DNA from: a virus
Reading direction: 5' to 3' (one strand)
IMG/VR virus record: IMGVR_UViG_3300049830_000142
Coordinates: 1-64,000 of that record
Length of the DNA stretch: 64,000 bases
Part shown: piece by piece, positions 8,082 through 55,711 of the stretch
Layout: every line of letters begins with the position of its first letter
How positions within the stretch are numbered: position 1 is the stretch's first letter
Notes under the pieces: generated by a model
Database searches by the model: none
Seen by the model: the letters and a program-made list of their open reading frames with translations, nothing else
What the model was told of the DNA's origin: nothing
Program-made: the position numbers and the translations under genes

Positions 8082-9422
8082 ATGACAGTCAACGAATTTT
8101 GTACTAGGTTAAACTTACAATCAGTTTTGGTGCATTTTGCCTGCGAAAGGCCTAAATCCACCCACAAAGTCCCTAGGTTAGGACAGCTAGCCTTAGCCCA
8201 AGATGACAATGCTTATAACGCCATTGATCTCTTCTTCTTTACACAGCCGCATAAGATAAAGAGAGATGATTATGAGTTTGGTAGGAAATGCTATAGCTAC
8301 TTTGTACAGGAGCATCCGGAGCTCTTTGATATACCGCCAAAGTATACTGAAACGGACGAACTTAGCTTTGCGCAGGACTATACCTTACATAGAAGTCAGG
8401 AGAGGTTCTGGCTAGCTTGTAGGACTGCTGGCAAGGAGATGCCAATGTATTACAACGGAAAGCCTATCATGATGGGTAAACTGCTGAATGAACTTGGTAT
8501 GCCTAAGTTTACACAGACTGAAATAGGTGTAGTCACTGCTAAGCACATCAGTGATCCTGTCTTCCGTCCACTGTTGTTAAATGAAGCTTACTCTAACAAG
8601 TTACTGTTACCTACGTTTTATGCGCCAGGTAAATTAGCTTCATTAGAGATCATTCTTAATCCTAAGGACATTGCTGACCGAAAGATGATCTACCGTAACC
8701 CCGAACCTGGCTGGTATGGTAGGTTAGGTGGAAGTGTAGTTGGAGATATACGAAACTTGTTTGAGATCGAAGGTTGTACTTGGTCTCAGAAAATTGTTGG
8801 TTGGTCTGATAAAGTATTGAATCTTCATCATTCCTTGAAGCCGCAGCAGTGTATCGAGATTTGGCAACATACTGAAGAGATAGCTTCTAACTGTAATCCA
8901 TTGTCGCTAATAAAAACACCTGATCTGCATAAAGAGATCAAAGGTACGCTAGGAAAGCTGACAATTAAAAAAATGAAGGAGTTAGAAGCGATTACCGGCA
9001 TTCCCTTAAAACAGGCCTGGATTAAGGAGAAGACATCTGAAGTCAATATCAGTGGTACAAAGTTTCTTAGGATCGATGATAGGTACTATTATACTATTGG
9101 AAAAAATACCTATGAGTTCACTAACTTTGCGATGGAACTCTCTGAAATCAAGAAAGTGGGTGATGTCTACTATCAATTCGGTAGCATCATAAAAGACGGT
9201 GAGATTGCAGCATTCAAGATAAAATGCAAAGCTTTCATTAGCCAGTACTCATTGCTAAAAGAAATGACTGACATTATGTTAGATGCAGGCCTGGGCACTC
9301 CTAGAGTTACTCCAAACTATAAGAACTATCTACCAAATGTGATAGAAGCCTTTAATCCGGAGAACGACCAAGAGATGCCCAAGCCCGCTGCAAAGGAACT
9401 TACTGTGCCTGACCTTGACTAA
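8082..9422 (+). CDS. Hypothetical protein, possibly primase-related
   Basis: 446 residues. No firm family. The segment LLLPTFYAPGKLASLEIIL followed by PEPGWYGRLGG resembles a recurrent motif region of phage primase-type proteins, in which a beta-strand and PG turn precede a Trp-Gly motif. I see no complete Toprim motif and no zinc finger, so this is weak. The C-terminal third is charged and soluble. Transcribed divergently from the 8038 gene with 43 bases between starts and followed by a convergent hairpin. The first 40 codons overlap an open minus frame, so the true start could be downstream. Confidence 0.55.
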   Translation: MTVNEFCTRLNLQSVLVHFACERPKSTHKVPRLGQLALAQDDNAYNAIDLFFFTQPHKIKRDDYEFGRKCYSYFVQEHPELFDIPPKYTETDELSFAQDYTLHRSQERFWLACRTAGKEMPMYYNGKPIMMGKLLNELGMPKFTQTEIGVVTAKHISDPVFRPLLLNEAYSNKLLLPTFYAPGKLASLEIILNPKDIADRKMIYRNPEPGWYGRLGGSVVGDIRNLFEIEGCTWSQKIVGWSDKVLNLHHSLKPQQCIEIWQHTEEIASNCNPLSLIKTPDLHKEIKGTLGKLTIKKMKELEAITGIPLKQAWIKEKTSEVNISGTKFLRIDDRYYYTIGKNTYEFTNFAMELSEIKKVGDVYYQFGSIIKDGEIAAFKIKCKAFISQYSLLKEMTDIMLDAGLGTPRVTPNYKNYLPNVIEAFNPENDQEMPKPAAKELTVPDLD

Positions 9423-9521: not shown

Positions 9522-11933
9522 TTATGCCAAAGCCTTAGCACGGGCTTCAGCGACGATACCGCGGATTTCTTTCAAAGTCTGGAAACGTTTGAGCTGGCCG
9601 TCAACGAAGACGACCTCCAGCTCACTCTTAGCTTCCTCACCCCAAGTCACCTTCTCTTGGACTTGCAGACGACCCTTGTCATCTTTGTAGACTTTGAGCA
9701 GACCGCAGTTGCTCTTCTTTGTGCCATCGTCGGTAACCGGATCTTTGAAGATGTCGACCGATTTACCGTTGATTTCCACATAAGTGGCTTTCATAGCCAG
9801 ACCGAATGTGTCGCGAGTGTTGCACTGATAGGTATATGAACCAATACCTAGCACAACTTGTGAAGCGAATCCTTTCGCAGCCAATCCTTCGCAGATAGCA
9901 CGGGCGCGCTCTAAGGTAATGCTATCCCCATAGATGACGCCGATGTGTGAGTCAAGAAGCTTGTAGCCTTTGTCTGTAGTAGTCCCTCCGAAGATTTCCC
10001 ACAAACATTGAACTACGCCCTTACGTTCAGCTTCGCTTGCACCATCCGGATTACCACAGATGATTAACTCAGGGTCACCGCTATCAGGGCGGATGACCAC
10101 TTTACCGTCACGAGCCAGCACGTCAGCTTTGAGAGCTAACAGGTATTCGGTGACGACTTTCCAAAGGTCCCAGGTATCACTGACGATTGAAACGATGCCC
10201 TTGGGATAGACTTTGGTGATGAGACGACGGAAGGTTTCAATTTCCGTGCCTTTACCACCGCTACACATAACGCTGTGTTCAGTAGCGGGAACAGAGCCGC
10301 CAACCAATTCCTTGGTCACGTCAGCTCCATAGTAGTATTCCAAACCAGTGATGGCAGGAATCGTATCAGTGCCAGTAAAGCTCAACAAGTGAGCCATGCC
10401 AGATCTTTGAGCGCTGTCCCACCCATCCATGCCTCGGAAGCTGAAGTCGTGCCCTTGCCATTGCACGAACTCCGGAGACATGCCAGTTTCCTTGGCATAT
10501 TTATCCAGGATCAGCCTGTATTGGAATGCGATGGTTGCGCTTGTGCTCATCTTCCAAACCTCTGCGCTAAACAAGCTTTCTACCCAGTTAGTCACCCAAT
10601 AGAACTCAGGCAACGTATTCAAGACAGTGAGGCAAGGAACACGCATAGGAACTAGCGTACCCTCTTTCACAGCCTTGATCTTGATAGGCAGATAACCGAG
10701 CTTGTGCAAATCTTCGACGTGCTTGTATGAAGCCAGGTCTCCAGTTGTGTTGGAGATGATTCGCTTATACTCGCCTAACACTTCAGCAAGAGGTTTCTTG
10801 AAGAAATGTTTGTTGAAGTAGTCAATGAGGACACGTTGGCAGAACATTTGCAAACCAAAGAACATCATACTATCCACTCCAGCTATACGACTCTTACGAG
10901 CAGTCCAGTTAGAATAGACGTATTCAGTTCCTTCCGGATACTGAAAGACGTGACCAACTTTATAGAAGTCAGTCAAGAGCAGTGGATTCGGTTCCTTTTT
11001 AACGAAATGCTCTTTCTTCGGAATGATGATGTCATTCGTCTTGTATTGCAGGTTACCGGCTTTTGCATCGAGAGCAGCGAAGACAGGAACGACAGTAACA
11101 ATCTTGCTACTATAGTTATTGCTGAAGCTATCGCTCGTGATGATGTTGTCGAAATACTTTTCCAACTCCATGAACCCTTTGGAAAAGATGCCGTGCGAAA
11201 CGATCAACGTCATCGTCTTGGGAGGCAAGGCCGAGCCGTCTTTGCAGTCAGCCGAGTATTCCTTGAGCTGTTGAGCAATGGCGGTGAAGGTTGCACCACC
11301 GTCACAAATGTCATCAATGATGACGCAGTTTCTTCCAGAACAGATAGCTGCCACCTCATTCGGAACTTTGAGCGTGATGGCACCAGTTGCAAGGTTACGA
11401 TCTTTCGAGCAATAGACGATCTCTTTGATGTTGGTATTCCAGCCAAGATAGCTCTTCACTTTCTTAGCAGCGCCAGCATCAGGCACTATCAGGACAGCGT
11501 CTTCCTGTTTATATGCCTGGACCAGTTTACTGTTGTTGTGAGCTTTGCTGTGCTTGATTAGAGCTGGAGCGACGTCGCTGTGTGGATCGAAAAGGTTGAC
11601 GACCTTGAAACCGCATTGATTGATTAGATCAGCAACGACTTCGAGGAAGACAGGACCTCCAGGGACCATTACACGGTCAGACCTGGCACCGAGCAAGTAA
11701 GGTATTACGAGCTCAGCTTTTTCGATAAACATATGATCGAGGGCGTTCGAGAGCTGAAGTAAGTTCATTACGTCTAAGCTAGAGCGTAAACGAGCAACAA
11801 CCCGCACACCGTCTTTCGCAGAGTCAACAGAAACCTCTTTCGTGTTGACCGTCAAATTTGGTTGGTTATCCGGAAACATTCCCAGTCCTACTCCAGACTG
11901 TGTATCCAGGTTTAGTGTTTGTAGTATTTTCAT
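9522..11933 (-). CDS. Fused PRPP-synthetase-like / NAMPT-like NAD+ salvage enzyme (NARP1-type candidate)
   Basis: 803 residues in one frame. Residues 1-310 form a ribose-phosphate pyrophosphokinase-like domain: ATP-site PYLLGARSDR (about 78), FDPHSDVAP (about 115) and the PRPP loop CVIIDDICDGGATF (about 203). Residues 316-803 form a nicotinamide phosphoribosyltransferase-like domain (PLLLTDFYKVGH, ATEHSVM, SIVSDTWDLWKV, IRPDSGDP). Phage NARP1 uses exactly these two relatives, Adps and Namat, to rebuild NAD+ from ADP-ribose and nicotinamide after NAD+-depleting defences fire; there they are separate genes. A conventional PRPP-to-NMN route is the alternative. It overlaps the 11930 gene by four bases, so the two are translationally coupled. 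Confidence 0.9.
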   Translation of the reverse strand: MKILQTLNLDTQSGVGLGMFPDNQPNLTVNTKEVSVDSAKDGVRVVARLRSSLDVMNLLQLSNALDHMFIEKAELVIPYLLGARSDRVMVPGGPVFLEVVADLINQCGFKVVNLFDPHSDVAPALIKHSKAHNNSKLVQAYKQEDAVLIVPDAGAAKKVKSYLGWNTNIKEIVYCSKDRNLATGAITLKVPNEVAAICSGRNCVIIDDICDGGATFTAIAQQLKEYSADCKDGSALPPKTMTLIVSHGIFSKGFMELEKYFDNIITSDSFSNNYSSKIVTVVPVFAALDAKAGNLQYKTNDIIIPKKEHFVKKEPNPLLLTDFYKVGHVFQYPEGTEYVYSNWTARKSRIAGVDSMMFFGLQMFCQRVLIDYFNKHFFKKPLAEVLGEYKRIISNTTGDLASYKHVEDLHKLGYLPIKIKAVKEGTLVPMRVPCLTVLNTLPEFYWVTNWVESLFSAEVWKMSTSATIAFQYRLILDKYAKETGMSPEFVQWQGHDFSFRGMDGWDSAQRSGMAHLLSFTGTDTIPAITGLEYYYGADVTKELVGGSVPATEHSVMCSGGKGTEIETFRRLITKVYPKGIVSIVSDTWDLWKVVTEYLLALKADVLARDGKVVIRPDSGDPELIICGNPDGASEAERKGVVQCLWEIFGGTTTDKGYKLLDSHIGVIYGDSITLERARAICEGLAAKGFASQVVLGIGSYTYQCNTRDTFGLAMKATYVEINGKSVDIFKDPVTDDGTKKSNCGLLKVYKDDKGRLQVQEKVTWGEEAKSELEVVFVDGQLKRFQTLKEIRGIVAEARAKALA

Positions 11934-12505
11934 TTTATTGGTTTAACGTAAGGCTCCTGGTTTTCACGCCAGCAGATGTTTAGTTGAGCTAGTATTTTGT
12001 CGAGCGCAGGCGATAGGCCTAACGCAGGCTCGTGCGCGTTCATTAGTGATACAAGTGTACGCTTCTGCATACCTGTGCAGTACTCTCGCTCCATGATAGT
12101 GCTAAGCAGATCACGGATATCACTGATTGTGCCACAACAAGGAGCTAACTCGCATTCCTCGTCATACTGCAATCGATCGCTATCTTTCTTAAGACCAATG
12201 GCCTTAAACCACTCGTCTTGTGTTGCTACAACAGGATATGTGACTGCCATTTCTTTAGCCTCCTGATAGCTAAGAAAAAATTCGTCTGCTTTCCAGGCAT
12301 CCAAGAATGTCCCTCGGTCCATGTTGACAATACGCAACCTATAGTCAGTGGCATACAGTATGTCGCCTTTTTCTTTGTCTTTGCCTAGTATACAGAAGTA
12401 GCCTAGGATTTCATCTTCATGCACGTCTTTTACAACAGGCCTGGGGATGAAAACTTTGGTACCGATCGGTAACAAGTCATCCGCAATTTCACAAGTAATC
12501 TTCAT
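11930..12505 (-). CDS. Hypothetical protein coupled to the NAD+ salvage enzyme
   Basis: 191 residues from the ATG at 12505 (a frame open to 12553 has no supporting start). Opens MKITCEIADDLLPIGTKVF with a beta-rich N-terminal half, then CELAPCC and helical segments (DLLSTIMEREYC). No recognised family. Its stop overlaps the start of the fused NAD+ enzyme, so the pair is co-translated. Upstream lies about 800 bases of structured, apparently untranslated sequence reaching back to the minus-strand promoters at 13.3-13.4 kb. Confidence 0.65.
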   Translation of the reverse strand: MKITCEIADDLLPIGTKVFIPRPVVKDVHEDEILGYFCILGKDKEKGDILYATDYRLRIVNMDRGTFLDAWKADEFFLSYQEAKEMAVTYPVVATQDEWFKAIGLKKDSDRLQYDEECELAPCCGTISDIRDLLSTIMEREYCTGMQKRTLVSLMNAHEPALGLSPALDKILAQLNICWRENQEPYVKPIK

Positions 12506-14988: not shown

Positions 14989-15846
14989 TTAGACTGACAC
15001 TTCGTACTTGATAGGGTCACTGTACTTATAGCCGGTCAACCCAGTGTGACCATATTCCCAATCAAAGATACTAGTGAAGTCATCTGTATGTATCTCAGGC
15101 AACTCATGTGTAGCTTGAGTCAATTGCTGCTTAACTCCATCCATGTGGTTAGCATAGATATGAGTATCCATCAAGAACCCGATTAGCTTGCCTTCCTTCA
15201 AATTAGCCTCTTTAGCTAATAGATGAAGTAAGAGAGCGTAACTAGCGATGTTCTGAGGTAAACCACAGCAAGTATCTACACTACGCTGGTTCCAAGCTAA
15301 GTTTAGCTTATCACCTATTACTGTAACTTGAAAACCGTAATGGCAACTAGGTAATGCTGCGTAAGGAAGTACTAAAGGATTCCAGGCAGACACAATCATA
15401 CGTCTGTCACTAGGATTCTTCTTTAAGGTGTCCACTAATACCTTAAGCTGGTCTATCTTATCACCACAGTTATGGCAACCGAATCCTCTCCACTGTGTTC
15501 CATAGATTAGGCCTAGATCGTCTTCAGCAGCCATCTTAGCTTTGGTAGCGTCGTCATTAGCATAGGGAACTAACTTAGGATTACACCAACCATCCCAGTA
15601 ATGACATCCCCTATCCTGCAACCACTTCTTGCTACGTAAGCCCTTGATGAAGAACTCTAACTCAACTTTCGTAGACTTGAACGGAAGCTTTCGACTAGTG
15701 AGTAGTGGAAAGCCATCCGCCATATCGTGCTCAAACATGAAACCGGCAATGGTTAAGCAATCGACACCAGTCCTATTGCCCTTCCATTGCCCTTCAGTAA
15801 GTATCTTGTTGAGTAAGTCTAAGTATTGTTTGTCTGCGTTATTCAT
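14989..15846 (-). CDS. thyA: Thymidylate synthase (ThyA type)
   Basis: 285 residues from the ATG at 15846. Converts dUMP to dTMP using methylene-tetrahydrofolate. Visible signatures: GNRTG near the N-terminus, RRMIVSAWNP, the catalytic cysteine in ALPSCHYGFQV (about 170), NQRSVDTCCGLPQNIASYALL, and DTHIYANHMDGV. Length and motif order match bacterial ThyA (about 264 residues). Last gene of a minus-strand dNTP operon with dTMP kinase upstream; convergent with the 13.5 kb operon. Confidence 0.95.
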   Translation of the reverse strand: MNNADKQYLDLLNKILTEGQWKGNRTGVDCLTIAGFMFEHDMADGFPLLTSRKLPFKSTKVELEFFIKGLRSKKWLQDRGCHYWDGWCNPKLVPYANDDATKAKMAAEDDLGLIYGTQWRGFGCHNCGDKIDQLKVLVDTLKKNPSDRRMIVSAWNPLVLPYAALPSCHYGFQVTVIGDKLNLAWNQRSVDTCCGLPQNIASYALLLHLLAKEANLKEGKLIGFLMDTHIYANHMDGVKQQLTQATHELPEIHTDDFTSIFDWEYGHTGLTGYKYSDPIKYEVSV

Positions 15847-16036
15847 GACGCAGAGCCAACTGATTCTCACTAAAGATATGTAGCATACCTTCGCCATTAG
15901 CTGTAGTAAGCTCTGCCACAACCCTAGCGTTACCAGTCAAGGTTTTGAATATGCTAACTACTGTACCGTCAAATGCGTATCCTTTAGGTTTACAGATCTT
16001 ATCGCCTACTTTGAATGGAGGTTCAGGGTAATTCAC
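15839..16036 (-). CDS. SH3-like small phage protein
   Basis: 65 residues from a GTG at 16036 that overlaps the stop of the upstream gene (GTGA); an ATG further up at 16066 would overlap more. The pattern FKVGDKICKPKGYAFDGTVVSIFKT..NARVV..LHIFSENQL is a small beta-barrel (KOW/SH3-like) family common next to phage nucleotide genes. Function unknown. Overlaps thyA by eight bases. Confidence 0.65.
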   Translation of the reverse strand: MNYPEPPFKVGDKICKPKGYAFDGTVVSIFKTLTGNARVVAELTTANGEGMLHIFSENQLALRHE

Positions 16037-16404
16037 TTTTCCTCCTCTAAGAATTGCGTTGCCCACTTCTCAGTATCTTCAGCCTGCTTCTTGACCTGAG
16101 CTTCTGTCAAAGCATCAAGTACTGGCTTATCTTTGCGAGGGTCATTTACTGCAGGTCTGTTACCTTCAACCTCAGTCATATACTTAACTGGGTCTGTACC
16201 TTTAGGTAACGTAATGACTCCTGAGTCTGTAGCCATCTGCCAAACTGCGTCTTTTATATCAGTCTTAGGCTGGGTGCTTGCTAAAGCATTGATAATGATC
16301 TGATGTTGAACGAGCTCTGCTTGTGCAGCTGCTTTCTTTCTCTCTGCGTCTACTTTGCGAAATACTGCGGCTTCACTGTTTGTGTCTTGTGTTGGTTGTC
16401 CCAT
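16033..16404 (-). CDS. Hypothetical charged helical protein
   Basis: 123 residues, soluble and highly charged, with helical ends (DAERKKAAAQAELVQHQ, EAQVKKQAEDTEKWATQFLEEE) around a proline-containing middle. No motif known to me. Sits between dTMP kinase and the SH3-like gene in the dNTP operon with one-base or overlapping junctions. Confidence 0.6.
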   Translation of the reverse strand: MGQPTQDTNSEAAVFRKVDAERKKAAAQAELVQHQIIINALASTQPKTDIKDAVWQMATDSGVITLPKGTDPVKYMTEVEGNRPAVNDPRKDKPVLDALTEAQVKKQAEDTEKWATQFLEEEK

Positions 16405-16405
16405 A

Positions 16406-17164
16406 TTATGTAATTATTTTGTTACCTGCGTCTACTGTTAGCTGGCCTTCTTTAAGTTTACCAACTCTAAAAGCTGTGCAACGATAAATCTCGTTGTGAA
16501 CATCTTCTATAGAGCCTGAAGAATCAATGTTAAGTATCTTACCATTGCTCTCCTTCTCCTTACTCTTTAACCAATCGAAACCTTGAGCTATCCTAGTTTG
16601 GTAAGCTAGAGCCTCGCCCTCAAATCTATCCGTGCCGCCTCTATTAGCTTTGCGCTTAGCTGACTCTTCTGGGCTAATATCCATGACGAAGGTTAGATCA
16701 GGTACGGTTGGGCCTACTGTAAACTGTAGTAGAGCATTGATGATGTTCATGTCAGTCTGTCTACCAAACCCTTGATAGATGATAGTACTATACAAGAACC
16801 TGTCACAAATGCAAATACCGCCCGCTTCAAGAGCAGGTCTAATCTTTTCTTCTACTAACTGAGCTCTGTCAGCATTCATTAGTAATAGTTCAGCTGCATC
16901 ACAAATCTTAGAGCTAGGGTTCTTAACGATTTCCCTGAGTGATTCTCCTAAGCTAGATGAGCCTGGTGATCTGAATTGATGGACATGAAAGCCTAGTTGT
17001 TGGAGAGCCTTAGCTAGTAAATCTACTTGCGTAGTCTTACCTGCGCCATCTACTCCTTCAAAGCTAATCAAATAGCCCTTCTTCAATCCTACCGTAGGAT
17101 ATTGAATACCATCCCTGGCAATCGTATCCTGCATATTCTTTAGAAAGTCTGCATGCTTATTCAT
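16406..17164 (-). CDS. tmk: Thymidylate kinase
   Basis: 252 residues. Phosphorylates dTMP to dTDP. P-loop FEGVDGAGKTTQ (about 36), the DR(F) signature CICDRFLYSTIIYQG (about 115), and a lid-type RKANRGGTDRFEG (about 185). Slightly longer than typical Tmk (about 210) because of an N-terminal extension of about 28 residues before the first strand. Overlaps the Nudix gene start by eight bases. With thyA, RNR and dCMP deaminase it makes a pathway to dTTP. Confidence 0.92.
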   Translation of the reverse strand: MNKHADFLKNMQDTIARDGIQYPTVGLKKGYLISFEGVDGAGKTTQVDLLAKALQQLGFHVHQFRSPGSSSLGESLREIVKNPSSKICDAAELLLMNADRAQLVEEKIRPALEAGGICICDRFLYSTIIYQGFGRQTDMNIINALLQFTVGPTVPDLTFVMDISPEESAKRKANRGGTDRFEGEALAYQTRIAQGFDWLKSKEKESNGKILNIDSSGSIEDVHNEIYRCTAFRVGKLKEGQLTVDAGNKIIT

Positions 17165-17588
17165 AAATTGCTTCTAATGCTATAGGGTGTCCTGGGTTGT
17201 AGATATGGTCCAAAGCCAAGTTCACTAACCAAGGGATATTAGGAATTGTCTTTTCTTTACGGGTGATAATATCATTCACTTCGTATATGCCAACGATCTC
17301 AGACTCAACTGTAGTGACATCTAAGATACAGTCCACGGCATAGAAACAAGCGACTACGAAGTTCTCTTCATTCAAGTCGCGTAACGTACAAATCTCTTTC
17401 CAATCAGCTTTGATGTTTGCTTCTTCCTTAGCTTCTCTAGTCATGGCTTGTAGATAAGTTTCGCCATCCTCAACCTTACCACCTACACCATTAAGCAAAC
17501 CTAGCTGCCATTCCGGCTTCTGTTTTCTAATCAACGCTATCTTAGAGCAGTCCTTAGAAAACAGTAAGCCCATTACATATTTAGTCAT
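17157..17588 (-). CDS. Nudix hydrolase
   Basis: 143 residues with a complete Nudix box, GGKVEDGETYLQAM followed by TREAKEEANI (residues about 35-58; Gx5Ex7REUXEExGU), binding the Mg ions that hydrolyse nucleoside diphosphate-X substrates. It could sanitise oxidised nucleotides or trim ADP-ribose or NAD-type compounds; the NAD+ salvage enzyme at 9.5 kb makes the second idea worth noting. Overlaps the HNH gene upstream. Confidence 0.88.
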   Translation of the reverse strand: MTKYVMGLLFSKDCSKIALIRKQKPEWQLGLLNGVGGKVEDGETYLQAMTREAKEEANIKADWKEICTLRDLNEENFVVACFYAVDCILDVTTVESEIVGIYEVNDIITRKEKTIPNIPWLVNLALDHIYNPGHPIALEAIYE

Positions 17589-18129
17589 TATTATACCTTG
17601 CTACTAGCTTACATAAGCTAATAAATTCTTTTTCGTCTAAGTCTTGTTTCATTAAATTAATATTTTTTAACACCCATTGACAGTTATCCTTAGTGTAACC
17701 TTTTGATGAGTCAATTCGGTCTAAAGATGCATTACTAGTCGTGTCTTCACCATACTTACGCAGTGATATTGGAACGTTAGTCAATGCACATAACTTATCC
17801 TGGCGTATAAATAGTTTCCAGCCGTCTTTGATCGTGATCTTAAACGGAATTCCTCGTTTTTTAGCACAATAACGGATACAACTCCATTCTGTGCCACCTA
17901 ATTCCTCGCATCCTAACCATTTCGAGTTTGTCTTGCCACGACGGTTAGTGCACCCACATGATTTTGAAGCACCACTTCTTAAATGATAACCAATCATGCT
18001 CTTGACCTTACCACAATCGCATTGACATTCGAACCTAGATTCATGTCTAGGATTGTGGTTGCCTAAGTCTCTTAAAACCGTTAGTTTACCAAATTTGGCA
18101 CCTTGCTTTATAATAATTTTACTACCCAT
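17581..18129 (-). CDS. HNH homing endonuclease (zinc-ribbon type)
   Basis: 182 residues. An N-terminal zinc-ribbon-like DNA-binding part (FGKLTVLRDLG, CQCDCGK, SCGCTNRRGKTNS) and an HNH-type core (CALTNVPISL, NASLDRIDSSKGYTKDNCQWV). A free-standing mobile gene inserted in the dNTP operon between ribonucleotide reductase and the Nudix gene, with its own leaderless promoter and AT-rich codons. The same architecture recurs at 43149-43724. Confidence 0.85.
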   Translation of the reverse strand: MGSKIIIKQGAKFGKLTVLRDLGNHNPRHESRFECQCDCGKVKSMIGYHLRSGASKSCGCTNRRGKTNSKWLGCEELGGTEWSCIRYCAKKRGIPFKITIKDGWKLFIRQDKLCALTNVPISLRKYGEDTTSNASLDRIDSSKGYTKDNCQWVLKNINLMKQDLDEKEFISLCKLVARYNND

Positions 18130-18135
18130 ATGTAA

Positions 18136-18164
18136 ATATTACACACAGGTAGTAAAAATGTCAA
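18136..18164 (-). promoter_or_regulatory. Leaderless promoter of the HNH gene
   Basis: Minus strand: TTGACA (18164-18159), 17 bases, TAATAT (18141-18136), six bases, ATG at 18129. Confidence 0.7.
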
Positions 18165-18174
18165 GACCAATAAG

Positions 18175-20157
18175 TTATTTCTTAGTAAACTTTATCTCGC
18201 AAGAATCATTACTACAAAATTTTTCAACATCAGCCTCTTCACCATGGATTCCTCTTAATTTTAGAGGTTTCAATTTTTCTAAAATCTCATCGTATTTTTT
18301 AGCAGTTATAGTTTCATAGGGCATTTGTCTATAAGTTGTACCAGACTCTAACATAGGAAGAAATGAAACACCTTTAAGCTGATATTGATAAAGGTCCAAT
18401 GCGAACTTAATTTGATCTGCTTCATGTTTCTTAAATGTAACTGTGCAACTAACTTGGTTATCCGCCCAATAACGCTGCATAAAGGCTGCCATACCCAGTT
18501 GTTCCCACATTGAAACATCTTTTAACGTTCGAATGTTTGTGCCTAAGCTAACAGGAATTTCAACCACCATAGTACTATCTTCCGAGCCATAGCAAGGTTC
18601 TATCTTGTACCCTGCGTCTTTTAGGGGTTGGATTAATTCGCTGTGTTTGCTCAATCGCATTCTACGAATATAGTGTGTGTTTTCTGGAAAATGCACACCT
18701 GGGGTAGCTCCAGCCAAAAGACTTACAGTACCTGATGGTTTAATCGATGTCTTCTTGATGCTTTTTGGAATAGCCAACCAGTCAGAATAAACTTCATCAT
18801 ATCTTTCAATAGCTTTATAGCCTTCCTCACACCAAACTTTGAGCTCATGTATTCCTTTAACCGCAAGAAATTGAGCGATACCACTCATACTGCAGCCTAT
18901 TCTACGGTTTCTAAGCATTACACGATTCGTGTCACTCCAGTGTGTCTCGCCTAAAGTAACGGTCTTAGCATATAGATAAGCGTACTTAAGCGTAACAAGA
19001 TAGTCTGCCATACTATCGTGATTCGATGGGAATGTCTCGACCAAGTTGCAAACTTCATAACTTTCCAAACTCTGTTCTAGACAAGGATTACCTCCAGATA
19101 CTCTAGAGTCTTTGTTGTCCTTGCCGTTATTCATTCTAGAGTAACCTTGCATATTCTCTAACCAAGCAAAACCAGGCTCACCGTTGATACGAGTCCTTTC
19201 AGCTGCGTTGGTATAGTCCATGCCGAGGTCACAAAAGATGCTGTTGTTACTAGTCCAACCAAAGCTCTCTCTCCTAGGGTTGACTTTGTAGTTCTTCAAA
19301 TCCAAATACTCGTTAGAGTTGTAATCACCGAATACTATTTCAGCGGTTCTTCTTACGTTACCAGCTACGACACATTTACCTACTAAGTTCATGATGTCGA
19401 CGATGGTTGTGATTGTGATCGGAGTACCTGCGTTCCTATCTAGAACTGCACGAATCACTTCATGCATCTCTTGTAAAGGACCAGGACCACTAGATACACC
19501 ACCGAAACCTTTGATAGGTAGTCCGGCTACTCTGACTTTGCCATAGTCAAAGACAATCTTTTTAGAACCGTTGAAGTAAGACTCAAGCAATACTTTGAGA
19601 GACTCTACCCAAGCTTCACGAGTGTCTTCTATGACAAATGTCTCGACGTTAGTCTTGTTTGGAGCGTAAATCTGAACCTGACCTGCACCTTTAGTGTCAA
19701 AGCCACATCCTACACCTACCATAGACACGTCCATCAAGAAACAGAAAGGCTTGGACCTATCTTCCTTTAGAGAAGAAGTAGATACGAATGCACAGTTGTT
19801 CAGAGCCATGTAGATGTTACGCTCTTCAGTGATAGGAGAACCCATAGCCCAAAGACCACGACCTGGAGGTAGGAACTTCATACTGAAGATTCGCTCATAC
19901 ATTTCTTGTGCAGACTTTTGGGCTTTCTGTGGTTGCCATCCTAACCTATGCTCTTCAATCCACTTCTTCTGCATATTGAACGTTCCCTCTACTACTCTAG
20001 CTACAGTCTCCCACCAACGTTCGTTCTCACCATTTTCCTTAATGCGGCTGTAAGTACGCATGTAGACTAACTCACCCAAGCCATTGAAACCAAATGGTGG
20101 CTTCTTATGTTTATAGCTAGAAAGAAAGTTGTCTGTTAATCTAAATTTATTTTCCAT
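18175..20157 (-). CDS. nrdJ: Adenosylcobalamin-dependent ribonucleotide reductase (class II, monomeric)
   Basis: 660 residues. Reduces ribonucleotides to deoxyribonucleotides using B12. Signatures: FLPPGRGLWAMGS (about 95), LNNCAFVST with the first redox cysteine (about 122), NPCLEQSLESYEVCNLVETFP with the radical cysteine and glutamate (about 375), KPSGTVSLLAGATPGVHFP (about 490), and a C-terminal cysteine pair FCSNDSC. Size fits the monomeric RtpR type. Oxygen-independent, so usable in aerobic or anaerobic hosts that supply cobalamin. No B12 riboswitch seen. Two bases separate it from dCMP deaminase. Confidence 0.93.
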   Translation of the reverse strand: MENKFRLTDNFLSSYKHKKPPFGFNGLGELVYMRTYSRIKENGENERWWETVARVVEGTFNMQKKWIEEHRLGWQPQKAQKSAQEMYERIFSMKFLPPGRGLWAMGSPITEERNIYMALNNCAFVSTSSLKEDRSKPFCFLMDVSMVGVGCGFDTKGAGQVQIYAPNKTNVETFVIEDTREAWVESLKVLLESYFNGSKKIVFDYGKVRVAGLPIKGFGGVSSGPGPLQEMHEVIRAVLDRNAGTPITITTIVDIMNLVGKCVVAGNVRRTAEIVFGDYNSNEYLDLKNYKVNPRRESFGWTSNNSIFCDLGMDYTNAAERTRINGEPGFAWLENMQGYSRMNNGKDNKDSRVSGGNPCLEQSLESYEVCNLVETFPSNHDSMADYLVTLKYAYLYAKTVTLGETHWSDTNRVMLRNRRIGCSMSGIAQFLAVKGIHELKVWCEEGYKAIERYDEVYSDWLAIPKSIKKTSIKPSGTVSLLAGATPGVHFPENTHYIRRMRLSKHSELIQPLKDAGYKIEPCYGSEDSTMVVEIPVSLGTNIRTLKDVSMWEQLGMAAFMQRYWADNQVSCTVTFKKHEADQIKFALDLYQYQLKGVSFLPMLESGTTYRQMPYETITAKKYDEILEKLKPLKLRGIHGEEADVEKFCSNDSCEIKFTKK

Positions 20158-48508: not shown

Positions 48509-51466
48509 ATGCGCTATACTGTATTAGACAAAGGCAACTTCAAGAAAGTAGATAAGCTGGACGACGACCATCTATCATTTCCTAGTTCCCGAGACCTATT
48601 TTCCATGCCCAGTAACCTTATCACAGGATTGGGTGGTGTGTCTGGTGGTCGTATTTTGCTAGGTGCCAAGGCTTCACTACAAAGCATTCCTCTAGTCAAC
48701 CCAGAAAGACCTTTAGTAGAAAGCTCAGATGACAATGACAAAGAGAGTACTCAAGAAAAGTTTGGTAAGCATTATCTGTCAGTCACGGCTACAAAACCTG
48801 GTATAGTTGATGAAGTGACTGATGAGCATATCAAAGTAAAGAATAAGGATGGTAGTCACAGTACTTATCAGCTTTACAAGAATTTTAACTTAGGACGTAA
48901 AAGCTTCATTACTAACACTGCGATAGTGAAGGCTGGTCATCAAGTGAAGACAGACGAGGTGTTGGCTCACTCCAACTACACCGACCCTAAAGGTAACATG
49001 GCATTAGGTGTTAATTTGACTACCGCTATCATGCCATTTAGATCCGACAACTTCGAGGATGCTTATGCTGTGACTGAGTCAGGTGCTAAAAAGTTGGCAG
49101 CGGAACAGATGCTAAAATATCATCTAGAAAAGAAATTTGGTGTTGATGCAGACAAGAATAAATTTATTGCGCTATTCCCAAACAAGTATACCAATGATCA
49201 AATCAAAGGTATTGACTCTGATGGTGTAATCAAACCTGGTACTGTAGTTCATGCAGGTGACCCAGTTCTATTAGCTTTTTCTCCTAGAGCACTTAAAAGC
49301 ACAGACTTAGCATTAGGTAAACTAAGCAAAGTATTGAAGCACGCTTTCAAAGATAACTCTGAGATCTGGGACTATGAACATCCTGGTACAGTCGTAGATG
49401 TATCTAAGCACGGTGAGTTGATTACAGTTCACATTAAAACTGAGCGTAGTCTATTACCTGGTGATAAGATTGGTAGTATCTTCGGTGCAAAAGGTGTAGC
49501 CACAATTATACCAGACTCACAATCTCCGACTACTCCTGATGGCAAGCCTGTGGATATTATGCTTAACTCAATGAGCATTACATCTAGAGTAGCCCCAGCT
49601 CTAGCCGTTACACTAGGACTAGGCAAACTAGCTCAAAAGAAAAAGGAAGTGATCAAGATGGACCAGTTCACTAAAGAATCGTCAATTGGTAAAGTTCTTA
49701 AAGTACTGGCCAAGAATGACATTTCAGATACCGAGACTGGTAGGAATATTGAGGCTGTTGTTGGACCTCTTTATTATAATCGTCTTACTCACATCTCTGA
49801 GGACAAGCTCAGTACGAGGTCGCAGGGTACAGGCTACTCGTTCGACATGCAGCCTAGCAAAACGACTGGCGAATCTAGTAAAAGGATCGGTAACCTTGGT
49901 ACTACTGCCTTGCTTAGCCATGATGTTAAACATGTATTGGAAGACATTGGTACCGTTAAAGGTACAAAGAACGATGATTTCTGGAGAGCCCTTAAACTAG
50001 GCCAGACTCCACCACCACCTAAAGTACCTTTCATTTTCAACAAGTTTATTGCTAGCTTACAGTCTGCTGGGGTAAACGTGAAACGAGATGGCAGTGTATT
50101 TAACATCATGCCAATGACCGACAAGGATACGTTGGCTATCAGTAATGGTGAAATCAAAAAGCCTACGATGTTCAAACCTCATCAAGATGAACTAGTGCAT
50201 GAACCAGGTGGTCTATTCGATCCTAATACAGTCGGTATCTTGGGTGACAAGTTCAATCATATTAGTCTTAACCATTCCGTACCTAATCCTATCAGCGAAG
50301 ACTATCTTCGTAAATTGTTAGGAGTCACTAAACTCAAGTTTAATGCTATGGTGGTAGATGGTACGATGGAAAAAGAATTAGGCAAGATGAACCTCGACAA
50401 CAAGATTACTGAAATGCGTCAGTATATCGAGGGCGGTAAAAAGACTAAACGTGATGATGCTGTAAAGATTTTGGAATTTTTGACTACGTTAAAGAAGAAG
50501 GGTATCAAGATTAGCGATTTGATGTTGACCAAGATTCCTATCTTACCAGCACAGTTCAGACCAGCTAGTAAGATGGGTGACGTTGTATTGACTAGCGATG
50601 TAAACAACCTTTACAAAGATCTTATCCTAAATAACAATTCTTTGAAAGATACGGCACATATACCTGAAGAGTTGATCAGCAAACTAAAGCAAGATCAGTA
50701 TGACGGTGTAAAGGCTGTGTTTGGTTTGGGTGATCCTATTAATAAGAAGCATGCTGATAAGAATGTAAAAGGTATCTTAGCTACTATGCTAGGTCTAAAA
50801 GGCGGTACTGCTAAATCAACGATGTTCCAGAGCAAGGTCGTTAATAAATCATTGGACTTAGTAGGTAGAGCAGTTTTGACTCCTGACACTAGGCTAGACG
50901 TGGATCAAGCTAGCGTCCCTCAAGATTTGCTGTGGCAGGTATACAAACCTTTCGTAATTCGTAGATTAGTCATGAAAGGCGTCCCAGCTGTATCTGCTGT
51001 AGACTATGTCAAAAAGCACAGTTCGTTGGCAGTTCAAGCTTTGAAAGAAGAGATGGCTGAGAGACCTGGTATTGTAACTCGTGACCCAGCTTGGCACAAA
51101 TTTAACTTGATGGGTTTTCATCTCATCCCTAATCCTAATCCTAAGGACAAGACACTAAAACTAAACCCATTAGTGTTCAAAGGATTCGGTGCTGACAACG
51201 ACGGTGACCAGCTAAACATCCACGTACCGGCTACTGAAGAAGCTAGGAAAGAAGTATTGGCAAAAATGTTACCTAGCAAGAACTTGTTATCAGCCAAGTC
51301 ATTTAGCCCAGTACTCATTCCATCAAACGAATCAGCTCTAGGTTTATATTCGCTTAGCACTGAGAAGAATACTAAAGCAGCCCGTAAATATAAGACGGAG
51401 GCGGAGGTGGTGAAAGCCTATAACTCAGGTCACTTAGAAGAGGGTGACCAGATAGAAATAGGATAA
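48509..51466 (+). CDS. RNA polymerase beta C-terminal / beta' N-terminal fusion
   Basis: 985 residues. 1-527 is C-terminal beta: SLQSIPLVNPERPLV, GVNLTTAIMPFRSDNFEDAY, the barrel lysines in PGDKIGSIFGAKGV (about 317-328), LNSMSITSRVAPALAVTLG, ending LQSAGVNVK. From about 535 it is N-terminal beta': AISNGEIKKPTMFK, then the catalytic FGADNDGDQLNIHVP (about 893-907; three Asp of NADFDGD kept, Phe to Asn). The beta' zinc domain is reduced. Both active-site barrels thus lie on one chain. It needs betaN, betaM and beta'C encoded elsewhere in the window. Confidence 0.9.
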   Translation: MRYTVLDKGNFKKVDKLDDDHLSFPSSRDLFSMPSNLITGLGGVSGGRILLGAKASLQSIPLVNPERPLVESSDDNDKESTQEKFGKHYLSVTATKPGIVDEVTDEHIKVKNKDGSHSTYQLYKNFNLGRKSFITNTAIVKAGHQVKTDEVLAHSNYTDPKGNMALGVNLTTAIMPFRSDNFEDAYAVTESGAKKLAAEQMLKYHLEKKFGVDADKNKFIALFPNKYTNDQIKGIDSDGVIKPGTVVHAGDPVLLAFSPRALKSTDLALGKLSKVLKHAFKDNSEIWDYEHPGTVVDVSKHGELITVHIKTERSLLPGDKIGSIFGAKGVATIIPDSQSPTTPDGKPVDIMLNSMSITSRVAPALAVTLGLGKLAQKKKEVIKMDQFTKESSIGKVLKVLAKNDISDTETGRNIEAVVGPLYYNRLTHISEDKLSTRSQGTGYSFDMQPSKTTGESSKRIGNLGTTALLSHDVKHVLEDIGTVKGTKNDDFWRALKLGQTPPPPKVPFIFNKFIASLQSAGVNVKRDGSVFNIMPMTDKDTLAISNGEIKKPTMFKPHQDELVHEPGGLFDPNTVGILGDKFNHISLNHSVPNPISEDYLRKLLGVTKLKFNAMVVDGTMEKELGKMNLDNKITEMRQYIEGGKKTKRDDAVKILEFLTTLKKKGIKISDLMLTKIPILPAQFRPASKMGDVVLTSDVNNLYKDLILNNNSLKDTAHIPEELISKLKQDQYDGVKAVFGLGDPINKKHADKNVKGILATMLGLKGGTAKSTMFQSKVVNKSLDLVGRAVLTPDTRLDVDQASVPQDLLWQVYKPFVIRRLVMKGVPAVSAVDYVKKHSSLAVQALKEEMAERPGIVTRDPAWHKFNLMGFHLIPNPNPKDKTLKLNPLVFKGFGADNDGDQLNIHVPATEEARKEVLAKMLPSKNLLSAKSFSPVLIPSNESALGLYSLSTEKNTKAARKYKTEAEVVKAYNSGHLEEGDQIEIG

Positions 51467-53479: not shown

Positions 53480-53826
53480 TGAACTTCACTTTACTACAGT
53501 CTTTCTTGGAGCAGTCTTACAACTCAGCCAATCCTAAGATTAAAAGAGCAGCTGAGACTTTGACTGACCAGATGGTGGCCGCTAAAGAGACGGAAGAGAT
53601 TGAGCAGCCGACACTACATTCTGAGGAACGTAATCAGCCGTTGAATAACAGACCTAAGGACGAGATCGATAAACATCTATCTACTTGGATGCCTGATATC
53701 GTAAAACCTGATCCTGAAGTATCTGAATTCGGTAAAGCGGCTTCTATGTTTGACTTATACAGTAAAAAGTTGAATACTAAGCCTACACTATTTCAAAGAT
53801 ATGGCTTACACAACAACGGTAGGTAA
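53479..53826 (+). CDS. Hypothetical acidic protein
   Basis: 115 residues, helical, acidic (ETEEIEQPTLHSEE). LQSFLEQSYNSANPKIKRAAETL opens it. Overlaps the beta'C gene by 26 bases, so it is translated together with it. No family; an RNA polymerase accessory factor is possible from position only. Confidence 0.58.
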   Translation: MNFTLLQSFLEQSYNSANPKIKRAAETLTDQMVAAKETEEIEQPTLHSEERNQPLNNRPKDEIDKHLSTWMPDIVKPDPEVSEFGKAASMFDLYSKKLNTKPTLFQRYGLHNNGR

Positions 53827-55711
53827 AATCCTACTGAAACATTACAGTCCGGCGGCGACACACGCATTCCTAGATAGTAAGGAGCTTGACAAAAAGAACA
53901 TCGGAGCTTTCTTTGCTAACTTAGCTGAGAAGCATCCGGAGGAGTACATGAAGACTGTCTCTGACCTAACGAGACTAGGCTTCGAGTCAGCTACTAGATT
54001 AGGTAGCACAGTTAGACTAGGCGACCTTGCTCCCCCAGATTTCAAGGACGAGGAGTTCAAAAAACTTCACGCCGAGATCGCAGGTATTCAGGCTAAGAAA
54101 CTTACTAAGGTAAAACAGAATGACGAAATCATTACTGCCCTTAACAAGTTCTCAGGCGACATTGACAAAAGGTTAGTTGAGCATGGTGTCAAAGAAGGTA
54201 AGACATTGGCGAAGGTTGTTAGGGCCGGTGCTCGTGGTAGCCCATCCCAGTATCGTCAAACTATTTTTTCTCCCGTAGCTGTCAATGATAACAAGGGCAG
54301 CGTTCTTACTGATTTCGTAATCGACAGGTCTTTTGCTGAAGGCCTCACCTTACCACAATACTTGGCGCATACCTTCGGTGCTCGTCAAGCTTCTGCAGCT
54401 ACTAAACTAGCTGTTGCTGACGCTGGTTACTTAGGTAAACAATTGGCCAGAGCTGGTATGACGATGAAAGTCGAGATGCATGACTGTGGTACTGATAGTG
54501 GTATTGCAATCAAAGTCGAAGACAAAGATTACCTCGGTACTTATTTAGCCAAGGCGGTTGATAAATATAATCATAACAACGAAGTCACTTCTTCGATGTT
54601 AGCTGACCTCAAAACAAAAGGGGTTGCTGACATTATTGTCCGTAGTCCTATCACTTGCCAAGCTAGTCACGACTCTCATCCAGGTGCAGTATGCCAACTA
54701 TGCGCAGGTAGACGTGAAAAAGGATTACCTGAGATTGGATCTTTCTTAGGAGTTGTGGCTGGAACTACTTTAGCTGAACCGCTATCACAAGGTATGTTAA
54801 ACTCCAAACACTCTGGTGGTTCAGCGAGAACTGCTACGTCATTTGGCGGTTTCAAATACGTTAACCAACTATTCAACATACCTGACTCTTTTGTACATGA
54901 GGCTCCGCTAGCTAACCATGACGGTGTTATTGAAGAAGTCAGACCAGCTCCTCAAGGTGGTAACTATGTCGTAGTCAAACATGTTAACGGCAAGACTGAA
55001 GAACACTACGTTCATCCTGACCTCAACGTATTCATCAAACCTGGCACTGCTGTCGAAGCCGGTGATGTATTAAGTGATGGTATTCCTAATCCAGCCAAGA
55101 TCGTTAAACACAAAGGTATTGGTGAGGGTAGAGTCTACTTTGCTAACGCAGTAAAGAATACATTTGAAAACAGCCAGCTAGGTGGTATCAACAAACGTAA
55201 CTTTGACATCATCAGCAAAGGTATCATTACGCACGTCAAAATTACCAACCCTAAAGGGTTGGGCGACCACTTGCCAGATACTATCGTCAATTACCATAGT
55301 TTAGAGAAGGCTTATACTCCTAGACACGATAGCCGCAAAGTTAGAGTAGACCAGGCAAAGGGATTATACTTGGAAATTCCTGCATTACACTATACAATAG
55401 GTACTAAGCTAACAAGCCATATGATGGACAACCTAAAGAAGCATGGTGTATCATATGTGACAGTACACGATGACAGTCCTGGGTTTGAACCTGAGATGCA
55501 ACGTTTGCTAGATGTTCCAGCCCACGAGCATGATTGGATGCACGCGCTGTACAGCACAAATTTGGAACGCAGATTAGTTAAAGCAGTTAATACTGGAGCT
55601 TCAAGCAGTATTGCTGGCCCTTCGCCTATACCTGGCCTGGCTTATGCCGTCGGCTTTGGTAAGAAGTCTGAGGAAGTCGAGCAAACTGAAGAAGCCTTAA
55701 GTTTCGAATAA
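53801..55711 (+). CDS. RNA polymerase beta' C-terminal fragment (beta'C)
   Basis: 636 residues. Opens with TTTVGKILL (bacterial TTvGRvl) and LGFESATRLGSTVRLGDL. The bridge-helix/trigger-loop region reads LPQYLAHTFGARQASAATKLAVADAGYL (about 186-213), then MHDCGTDSGI, and the zinc-type block SPITCQASHDSHPGAVCQLCAGR (about 285-307) with GVVAGTTLAEPLSQGMLNSKHSGG. It therefore holds the catalytic trigger loop missing from the 48509 chain. The split falls exactly between the 'aYxxG..lh..I' strand and TTvGR. Confidence 0.9.
   Translation: MAYTTTVGKILLKHYSPAATHAFLDSKELDKKNIGAFFANLAEKHPEEYMKTVSDLTRLGFESATRLGSTVRLGDLAPPDFKDEEFKKLHAEIAGIQAKKLTKVKQNDEIITALNKFSGDIDKRLVEHGVKEGKTLAKVVRAGARGSPSQYRQTIFSPVAVNDNKGSVLTDFVIDRSFAEGLTLPQYLAHTFGARQASAATKLAVADAGYLGKQLARAGMTMKVEMHDCGTDSGIAIKVEDKDYLGTYLAKAVDKYNHNNEVTSSMLADLKTKGVADIIVRSPITCQASHDSHPGAVCQLCAGRREKGLPEIGSFLGVVAGTTLAEPLSQGMLNSKHSGGSARTATSFGGFKYVNQLFNIPDSFVHEAPLANHDGVIEEVRPAPQGGNYVVVKHVNGKTEEHYVHPDLNVFIKPGTAVEAGDVLSDGIPNPAKIVKHKGIGEGRVYFANAVKNTFENSQLGGINKRNFDIISKGIITHVKITNPKGLGDHLPDTIVNYHSLEKAYTPRHDSRKVRVDQAKGLYLEIPALHYTIGTKLTSHMMDNLKKHGVSYVTVHDDSPGFEPEMQRLLDVPAHEHDWMHALYSTNLERRLVKAVNTGASSSIAGPSPIPGLAYAVGFGKKSEEVEQTEEALSFE

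What the first reader, a model, noticed from the sequence alone, without database searches (positions are those of the whole stretch)
9522..11933. Single-polypeptide NARP1-like NAD+ regeneration enzyme
A PRPP-synthetase-like domain and a NAMPT-like domain are fused in one 803-residue frame. The same two families act as Adps and Namat in the phage NARP1 pathway, which rebuilds NAD+ from ADP-ribose and nicotinamide and defeats NAD+-depleting defences. There they are two genes; a fusion would channel the pyrophosphorylated intermediate. A standard PRPP plus NMN route is the alternative.
Basis: partly seen in the sequence, partly recalled or inferred. Interest (0 to 1): 0.85.

Follow-up and report, generated by a model that had tools for sequence, protein, structure and literature searches.

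The report
Fused phage enzyme that rebuilds NAD+
A phage carries, as one continuous protein, two enzymes that other phages make separately to rebuild NAD+ after a bacterium destroys it in self-defence; both halves look complete, and the fusion was not seen in any other sequence I could search.

Summary
One 803-residue frame on the minus strand (11933 to 9522) joins a PRPP-synthetase-like domain (about residues 1-287) to a NAMPT-like domain (about 313-797) through a 23-residue linker predicted to be disordered. Domain 2 is a Namat: about 50-55% identical to the solved Namat of phage SPbetaL1, with the Namat signature helix (GSYTYQCNTRD, one aromatic replaced by Cys), and separate from NAMPTs in a tree (100/99). 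Domain 1 is an Adps: it separates from PRPP synthetases (100/100) and has the Adps form of four active-site motifs. The phage record has no NMN adenylyltransferase hit and no second PRPP synthetase. Best reading: a bifunctional NARP1 enzyme (ADP-ribose + ATP to ADPR-pyrophosphate; + nicotinamide to NAD+).

The fusion was unique in everything searched: none of 202 distinct gene pairs is fused, and the closest syntenic phage has two genes. A sequencing error is unlikely, because the linker codes well in the fused frame and the Namat part has no usable start codon of its own. No independent copy was found, and channelling is untested. The PRPP-to-NMN alternative is not favoured. This is a new architectural variant of a known system.

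The parts
9522..11933 (-). Adps-Namat fusion gene, 803 codons plus stop
   Evidence: Single open frame with ATG start; codon score positive in this frame through both domains and the linker
11073..11933 (-). Domain 1, Adps-type ADP-ribose pyrophosphokinase, about residues 1-287
   Evidence: phrog_619 8.6e-63; on the Adps side of the Adps/PRS split, 100/100; Adps motifs DPHSD, PDAGA, K177-x-R179, DDICDGGATF
11286..11315 (-). Loop DDICDGGATF (residues 207-216), Adps form of the PRPP-binding loop (PRS has DDxxDT[AG]GTL)
   Evidence: Alignment of 17 Adps rows and 7 PRS rows
10998..11066 (-). Linker, residues 290-312, predicted disordered, with no in-frame ATG/GTG/TTG
   Evidence: pLDDT below 50; start-codon and codon-score analysis
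9543..10997 (-). Domain 2, Namat-type nicotinamide ADP-ribose transferase, about residues 313-797
   Evidence: E 9e-184 to SPbetaL1 Namat 9w5x; Foldseek TMt 0.93-0.95 to 9w5x/9w5w; on the Namat side of the split, 100/99
10887..10889 (-). Arg349, equivalent of the selectivity-clamp loop residue Arg40 of SPbetaL1 Namat
   Evidence: Alignment; role from PMC12774641
9810..9842 (-). Selectivity-clamp helix motif GSYTYQCNTRD (residues 698-708); Cys704 stands where Tyr396 contacts adenine
   Evidence: consensus from PMC12774641
11930..12505 (-). Upstream gene of unknown function (ORF listed to 12553; ATG at 12505 fits the relative better), overlapping the fusion start as ATGA
   Evidence: 58% identical homologue directly upstream of Adps in the syntenic phage contig L001; no Pfam or PHROG match
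8082..9422 (+). Convergent downstream gene of unknown function, marking conserved synteny
   Evidence: 43% identical homologue in the same place in L001

Best explanation
The gene encodes a bifunctional NARP1 enzyme. Domain 1 (Adps) moves a pyrophosphate from ATP onto ADP-ribose to make ADPR-pyrophosphate. Domain 2 (Namat) then joins nicotinamide to it and releases NAD+. The products of host NADase defences (TIR, SIR2 and similar) would thereby be turned back into NAD+. Shown here: the fused frame, the family of each domain, conserved catalytic and most specificity residues, and the absence of an NMN adenylyltransferase hit or a second PRPP synthetase in the record. Inferred from characterised relatives: both reactions and the counter-defence role. 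Speculative: that the fusion gives fixed 1:1 stoichiometry or hands the intermediate from one active site to the other.
For: Domain 2: 9e-184 to SPbetaL1 Namat against 1.7e-65 to Xanthomonas NAMPT and about 2e-64 to mammalian NAMPT. Of 20 NAD+-contacting positions listed for SPbetaL1 Namat, 17 are identical, with A362S, F392Y and Y396C. Tree split Namat/NAMPT 100/99. Domain 1: Adps/PRS split 100/100, Adps forms of four active-site motifs, and Lys177 and Arg179 of the catalytic loop kept. Eight bacterial genomes that hold a Namat each have canonical PRPP synthetases scoring 340-421 bits with TIGR01251 plus a weaker match of 87-139 bits; the window's domain scores 85. In 199 genomes of one order, all nine with a Namat-like match at 58-65% identity also hold an Adps-like gene, while those with NAMPT-like matches at 36-39% do not. 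No nucleotidyltransferase (PF01467) hit in the 134,588-base record, with all 14 control genomes positive. The Adps + Namat reaction, the PRPP side activity and the clamp are published for SPbetaL1 (PMC12774641). Both domains show low dN with saturated dS against the nearest relatives.
Against: No enzyme assay. One clamp aromatic is lost (Cys704). HdNadV of Haemophilus ducreyi nests inside the Namat clade but has a degraded clamp (GAQTYQRNTRD) and was solved with NMN, so tree position alone does not prove ADPR-PP use. No structure of Adps exists, so its specificity residues are not known (PMC12774641). The fusion rests on one sequence record.
Confidence: 0.82

Rival explanations
1. The fusion is an assembly or sequencing error: the phage really has two adjacent genes, like its closest relative.
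For: Unique among 202 distinct gene pairs. The syntenic relative L001 has two ORFs in different frames, the Namat ATG 7 bases after the Adps stop.
Against: The linker scores as coding only in the fused frame (0.336 against -0.63 and -0.93). Adps homology runs to about residue 287 and Namat homology restarts with NPLLL (316-320), yet the first in-frame ATG/GTG/TTG after the Adps domain is TTG320, which would cut off conserved NPLL. A two-gene original would therefore need an indel error plus loss of a start codon.
Confidence: 0.07
2. A bifunctional PRPP synthetase-NAMPT: ribose-5-phosphate to PRPP to NMN, with NAD+ completed by host NMN adenylyltransferase.
For: The folds are shared. Namat keeps PRPP activity at about half the level of human NAMPT (PMC12774641). 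The HdNadV precedent lies inside the Namat clade. Cys704 may weaken the clamp.
Against: Domain 1 is Adps by tree and motifs. The HdNadV plasmid shows no annotated Adps gene, whereas here an Adps is fused on. Seven further distinct Namats also lack an aromatic at that position, among them the two-gene locus L142 with the same Cys. Single clamp mutants lose only 1.3-1.7 fold (PMC12774641). No NMN adenylyltransferase in the record.
Confidence: 0.06
3. The frame is continuous but cells contain separate enzymes, through proteolysis in the linker or internal initiation at TTG320 or CTG295.
For: The 23-residue linker is predicted disordered; an AAGGA-like stretch lies about 16 bases before TTG320.
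Against: TTG320 would remove conserved NPLL of the first strand; the spacing is long for a ribosome site, and only 6 of 48 genes in the window show a Shine-Dalgarno-like motif, so such a motif is weak evidence here.
Confidence: 0.08

Closest known systems
NARP1 of phage SPbetaL1 (Adps + Namat)
   Same: Same two enzyme families in the same order; Namat domain about 50-55% identical, catalytic residues kept
   Different: Two genes there, with no stable complex found by pull-down (PMC12774641); one polypeptide here; clamp Tyr396 replaced by Cys704
IMG/VR contig IMGVR_UViG_3300047552_000848 (L001)
   Same: Closest relative found: Namat 79-80% and Adps 59-61% identical; same upstream and downstream genes, TerL 80% identical
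   Different: Adps and Namat are separate ORFs in different frames
Chromosomal NARP1-like pairs of Bacteroidota (Terrimonas, Ferruginibacter, other Chitinophagaceae)
   Same: 65-67% identity in Namat and 49-52% in Adps; nearest cellular relatives
   Different: Two genes; on bacterial contigs rather than a phage
NrsAB of Vibrio phage ICP1
   Same: Same two families, reported as an NAD+-regenerating counter to a NAD-depleting defence (PMC11559045)
   Different: Two ORFs in the same frame separated by a stop
HdNadV of Haemophilus ducreyi pNAD1
   Same: 47% identical to domain 2 and nested in the Namat clade
   Different: No annotated Adps on the plasmid; clamp residues lost; solved with NMN
Phages with NAMPT + NMN adenylyltransferase (e.g. 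Vibrio phage VCPH nadV/natV)
   Same: Distant NAMPT fold, NAD+ synthesis
   Different: About 29-32% identity, GGGLLQ in place of the clamp helix, adenylyltransferase gene next door

Membership tests
Namat (nicotinamide ADP-ribose transferase) | Sequence grouping with Namat to the exclusion of NAMPT | tested here: met
   100/99 split, 36 Namat against 7 NAMPT rows
[quoted passage not shown]
   GSYTYQCNTRD: position 3 Tyr, position 7 Cys; Met, Cys and Val also occur at position 7 in a few of 233 distinct relatives
Namat (nicotinamide ADP-ribose transferase) | Stacking residue in the clamp loop (Arg40) | tested here: met
   Arg349
Namat (nicotinamide ADP-ribose transferase) | Catalytic core (Phe189, Asp215, Arg306, catalytic His) | tested here: met
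   Phe497, Asp523, Arg615; His553 invariant in the alignment
Namat (nicotinamide ADP-ribose transferase) | Makes NAD+ from ADPR-PP and nicotinamide | not testable with these tools
   Needs an enzyme assay
Adps (ADP-ribose pyrophosphate synthetase) | Groups with Adps of characterised NARP1, apart from PRPP synthetase | tested here: met
   100/100 split, 35 Adps against 7 PRS rows
Adps (ADP-ribose pyrophosphate synthetase) | Phosphorylates ADP-ribose | not testable with these tools
   No structure of Adps is available; assay needed
Ribose-phosphate pyrophosphokinase (TIGR01251) | Score over the curated cut-off of 113 bits | tested here: not met
   82.3 bits in hmmscan, 84.8 in the genome search
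Ribose-phosphate pyrophosphokinase (TIGR01251) | PRS motifs DLHAxQIQ, PDxG[GS], DT[AG]GTL | tested here: not met
   DPHSDV, PDAGA, DGGATF
NARP1 as described | Adps and Namat encoded as two separate genes | tested here: not met
   One frame; it should work like NARP1 but differs in architecture

The most novel reading that the evidence does not exclude
The first single-polypeptide NARP1: a natural fusion that physically couples Adps and Namat so that ADPR-pyrophosphate is passed between the two sites or kept from loss, with the clamp changed (Cys704) because the donor is delivered in cis.
Probability: 0.25. Interest if true: 0.75.

Novelty: new variant of a known kind. Interest (0 to 1): 0.52.

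Why it matters
NARP1 regenerates NAD+ in two steps through an unusual intermediate, and the two enzymes characterised so far show no stable complex. A natural fusion makes it possible to ask directly whether linking them speeds the pathway or protects the intermediate. It also gives a single-gene tool for NAD+ regeneration and a single-chain route to the still unsolved Adps structure.

Tried and rejected
A second fusion seemed to appear in the viral structure library (A0A449C383, 812 aa, aligned over 816 columns). The matching gene found, Stab23 g198 (also 812 aa), is a Namat carrying an intein-like Hint domain with a separate Adps gene, so this is not a fusion; the link between that accession and that gene is inferred from length and from the accession's likely source, not looked up. 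A first alignment of separate Adps and Namat rows placed Adps rows on the Namat half (A2) and was replaced by gene pairs read through their single stop (A3). One row (L288) was mis-framed in the tree and is disregarded. Replacement of the Adps part in the window lineage was considered because Adps is only about 60% identical to L001 while Namat is 79%; the best tree still pairs the two Adps domains, weakly (40/88). A search for the RyR-domain partner of NARP1 (PF02026) was silent in the record and in all controls, so it says nothing.

Full report
WHAT IS THERE. The window is bases 1-64000 of a 134,588-base virus record. The frame lies on the minus strand from ATG at 11933 to a stop at 9522, 803 codons. 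Its start overlaps the stop of the upstream gene as ATGA. HMM searches place a PRPP-synthetase-like domain at residues 15-286 and a NAMPT-like domain at 312-797. AlphaFold2, run on an alignment of 30 sequences, gives mean pLDDT 86.6 with one stretch below 50, residues 290-312; pTM is 0.63, so no fixed arrangement of the two domains is indicated. Foldseek matches the second domain best to crystal structures of Namat, 9w5x and 9w5w (TMt 0.93-0.95), then HdNadV (0.94, lower identity), then mammalian NAMPT (0.90-0.92).

DOMAIN 2 IS A NAMAT. It matches SPbetaL1 Namat at 9e-184 (615 bits), against 221-225 bits for most NAMPTs. The published clamp that selects ADPR-PP consists of Arg40 and of a helix motif GSX-Phi-X-Phi-X-Phi-TRD with aromatics at positions 3 and 7 (PMC12774641). 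The window has Arg349 and GSYTYQCNTRD: Tyr at position 3, Cys at position 7. The syntenic relative L001 has Val there. Among 233 distinct relatives position 7 is Tyr, Phe or His in 223; the rest have Met, Cys, Val or Arg, with two copies of the window itself among the Cys. Published single clamp mutants lose only 1.3-1.7 fold, so Cys704 probably weakens rather than abolishes ADPR-PP use; this is inference. In the tree Namat and NAMPT separate at 100/99 and the window pairs with L001 at 100/100. Caution: HdNadV falls inside the Namat clade yet has GAQTYQRNTRD and was crystallised with NMN, so clade membership alone does not settle the donor.

DOMAIN 1 IS AN ADPS. Against canonical PRPP synthetases from genomes that also hold Namat, the tree split is 100/100 with the window on the Adps side. 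Identity to the PRS rows is 19-23%, and to Adps rows 25-60%. Four motifs differ between the groups, and the window has the Adps form of each: [DE]xHS for DLHA, PDxGA for PDxGG, KxR[DN]xxxG for KxRxxAN, and xGxTF for DT[AG]GTL (the last with small exceptions among Adps rows). The catalytic Lys-x-Arg is kept. Which residues choose ADP-ribose over ribose-5-phosphate is not known, because no Adps structure exists (PMC12774641), so the substrate of domain 1 is inferred from family.

NO ALTERNATIVE NMN ROUTE IN THE RECORD. A search for nucleotidyltransferases (PF01467) found none, with 14 of 14 control genomes positive. TIGR01251 finds only this domain. The record may be incomplete.

IS THE FUSION REAL? 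None of 202 distinct loci with both genes is fused. The annotated phage records listed in two 60-row samples of 1946 matching records show separate features for the two genes wherever both lie under the match. Of 199 genomes of one bacterial order, none has a fused frame among the matches listed. The closest phage contig, L001, shares about ten genes in the same order, including TerL (80%), thymidylate synthase (83%) and the genes on both sides, and has two ORFs. The window linker differs: it codes well only in the fused frame, has no in-frame ATG, GTG or TTG before TTG320, and conserved NPLL of Namat lies upstream of TTG320. An error joining two genes would also have had to erase a start codon. 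I conclude that the fusion is most likely real and arose in this lineage after it split from L001.

SELECTION. Between the window and its nearest relatives dN is 0.16-0.32 for Namat and 0.35-0.47 for Adps with synonymous sites saturated, so both halves look constrained. The Adps half has the longer branch in the window (0.69 against 0.32 in L001), consistent with changed constraint after fusion, though this is only suggestive.

ORIGIN. The nearest cellular relatives are pairs in Chitinophagaceae and other Bacteroidota. Only 6 of 48 window genes have a Shine-Dalgarno-like motif, with A/T-rich leaders, which fits a Bacteroidota host but does not prove it.

MECHANISM. Most likely: ADP-ribose + ATP to ADPR-PP in domain 1, then + nicotinamide to NAD+ in domain 2, undoing NADase defences as shown for two-gene NARP1 (PMC12774641; PMC11559045 for ICP1; PMC13232231 for a mycobacteriophage). 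Because Namat is a dimer with the active site at the interface (PMC12774641) and PRPP synthetases are oligomers (own knowledge), the fusion may form larger assemblies. Channelling is a hypothesis: nothing here tests it.

LITERATURE. Searches of the held library found no description of an Adps-Namat fusion. The library lacks most subscription papers, and the original NARP1 report was not found in it, so this is weak evidence of novelty.

Noticed in passing
L289 (H. ducreyi plasmid pNAD1) 3828-5315: HdNadV, treated as a NAMPT, nests within the Namat clade next to Bacillus phage Namats but has lost the clamp aromatics (GAQTYQRNTRD) and has no annotated Adps beside it: a probable reversal from ADPR-PP to PRPP.
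   Followed up: partly
L374 1737-4175 and L372 11052-13442 (Staphylococcus phages Stab23, Stab20): Namat genes of 812 and 796 codons, about 300 codons longer than usual; the Stab23 record notes an intein-like Hint domain.
   Followed up: partly
L004-L008, L099, L174 and other loci listed: In 38 gene pairs Adps and Namat lie in the same frame separated by one stop codon, an arrangement from which fusion needs only one change.
   Followed up: partly
window 11930-12505 (-) and L001 5420-6001: An unknown gene directly upstream of the fusion, overlapping its start, is conserved (58%) in the same place in L001; no Pfam or PHROG match.
   Followed up: partly
window 14989-20157 (-): Nucleotide metabolism cluster: thymidylate synthase, thymidylate kinase-like, a Nudix hydrolase (17157-17588), HNH endonuclease, ribonucleotide reductase.
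   Followed up: no
window 48509-51466 and 53801-55711 (+): Two large proteins with matches to phage RNA polymerase beta subunits, possibly a divergent phage-encoded polymerase.
   Followed up: no
L290 127-2505 (Bacillus amyloliquefaciens plasmid) and G166:C55: Namat reading frame broken into two overlapping pieces beside an apparently intact Adps; real decay or sequence error.
   Followed up: no
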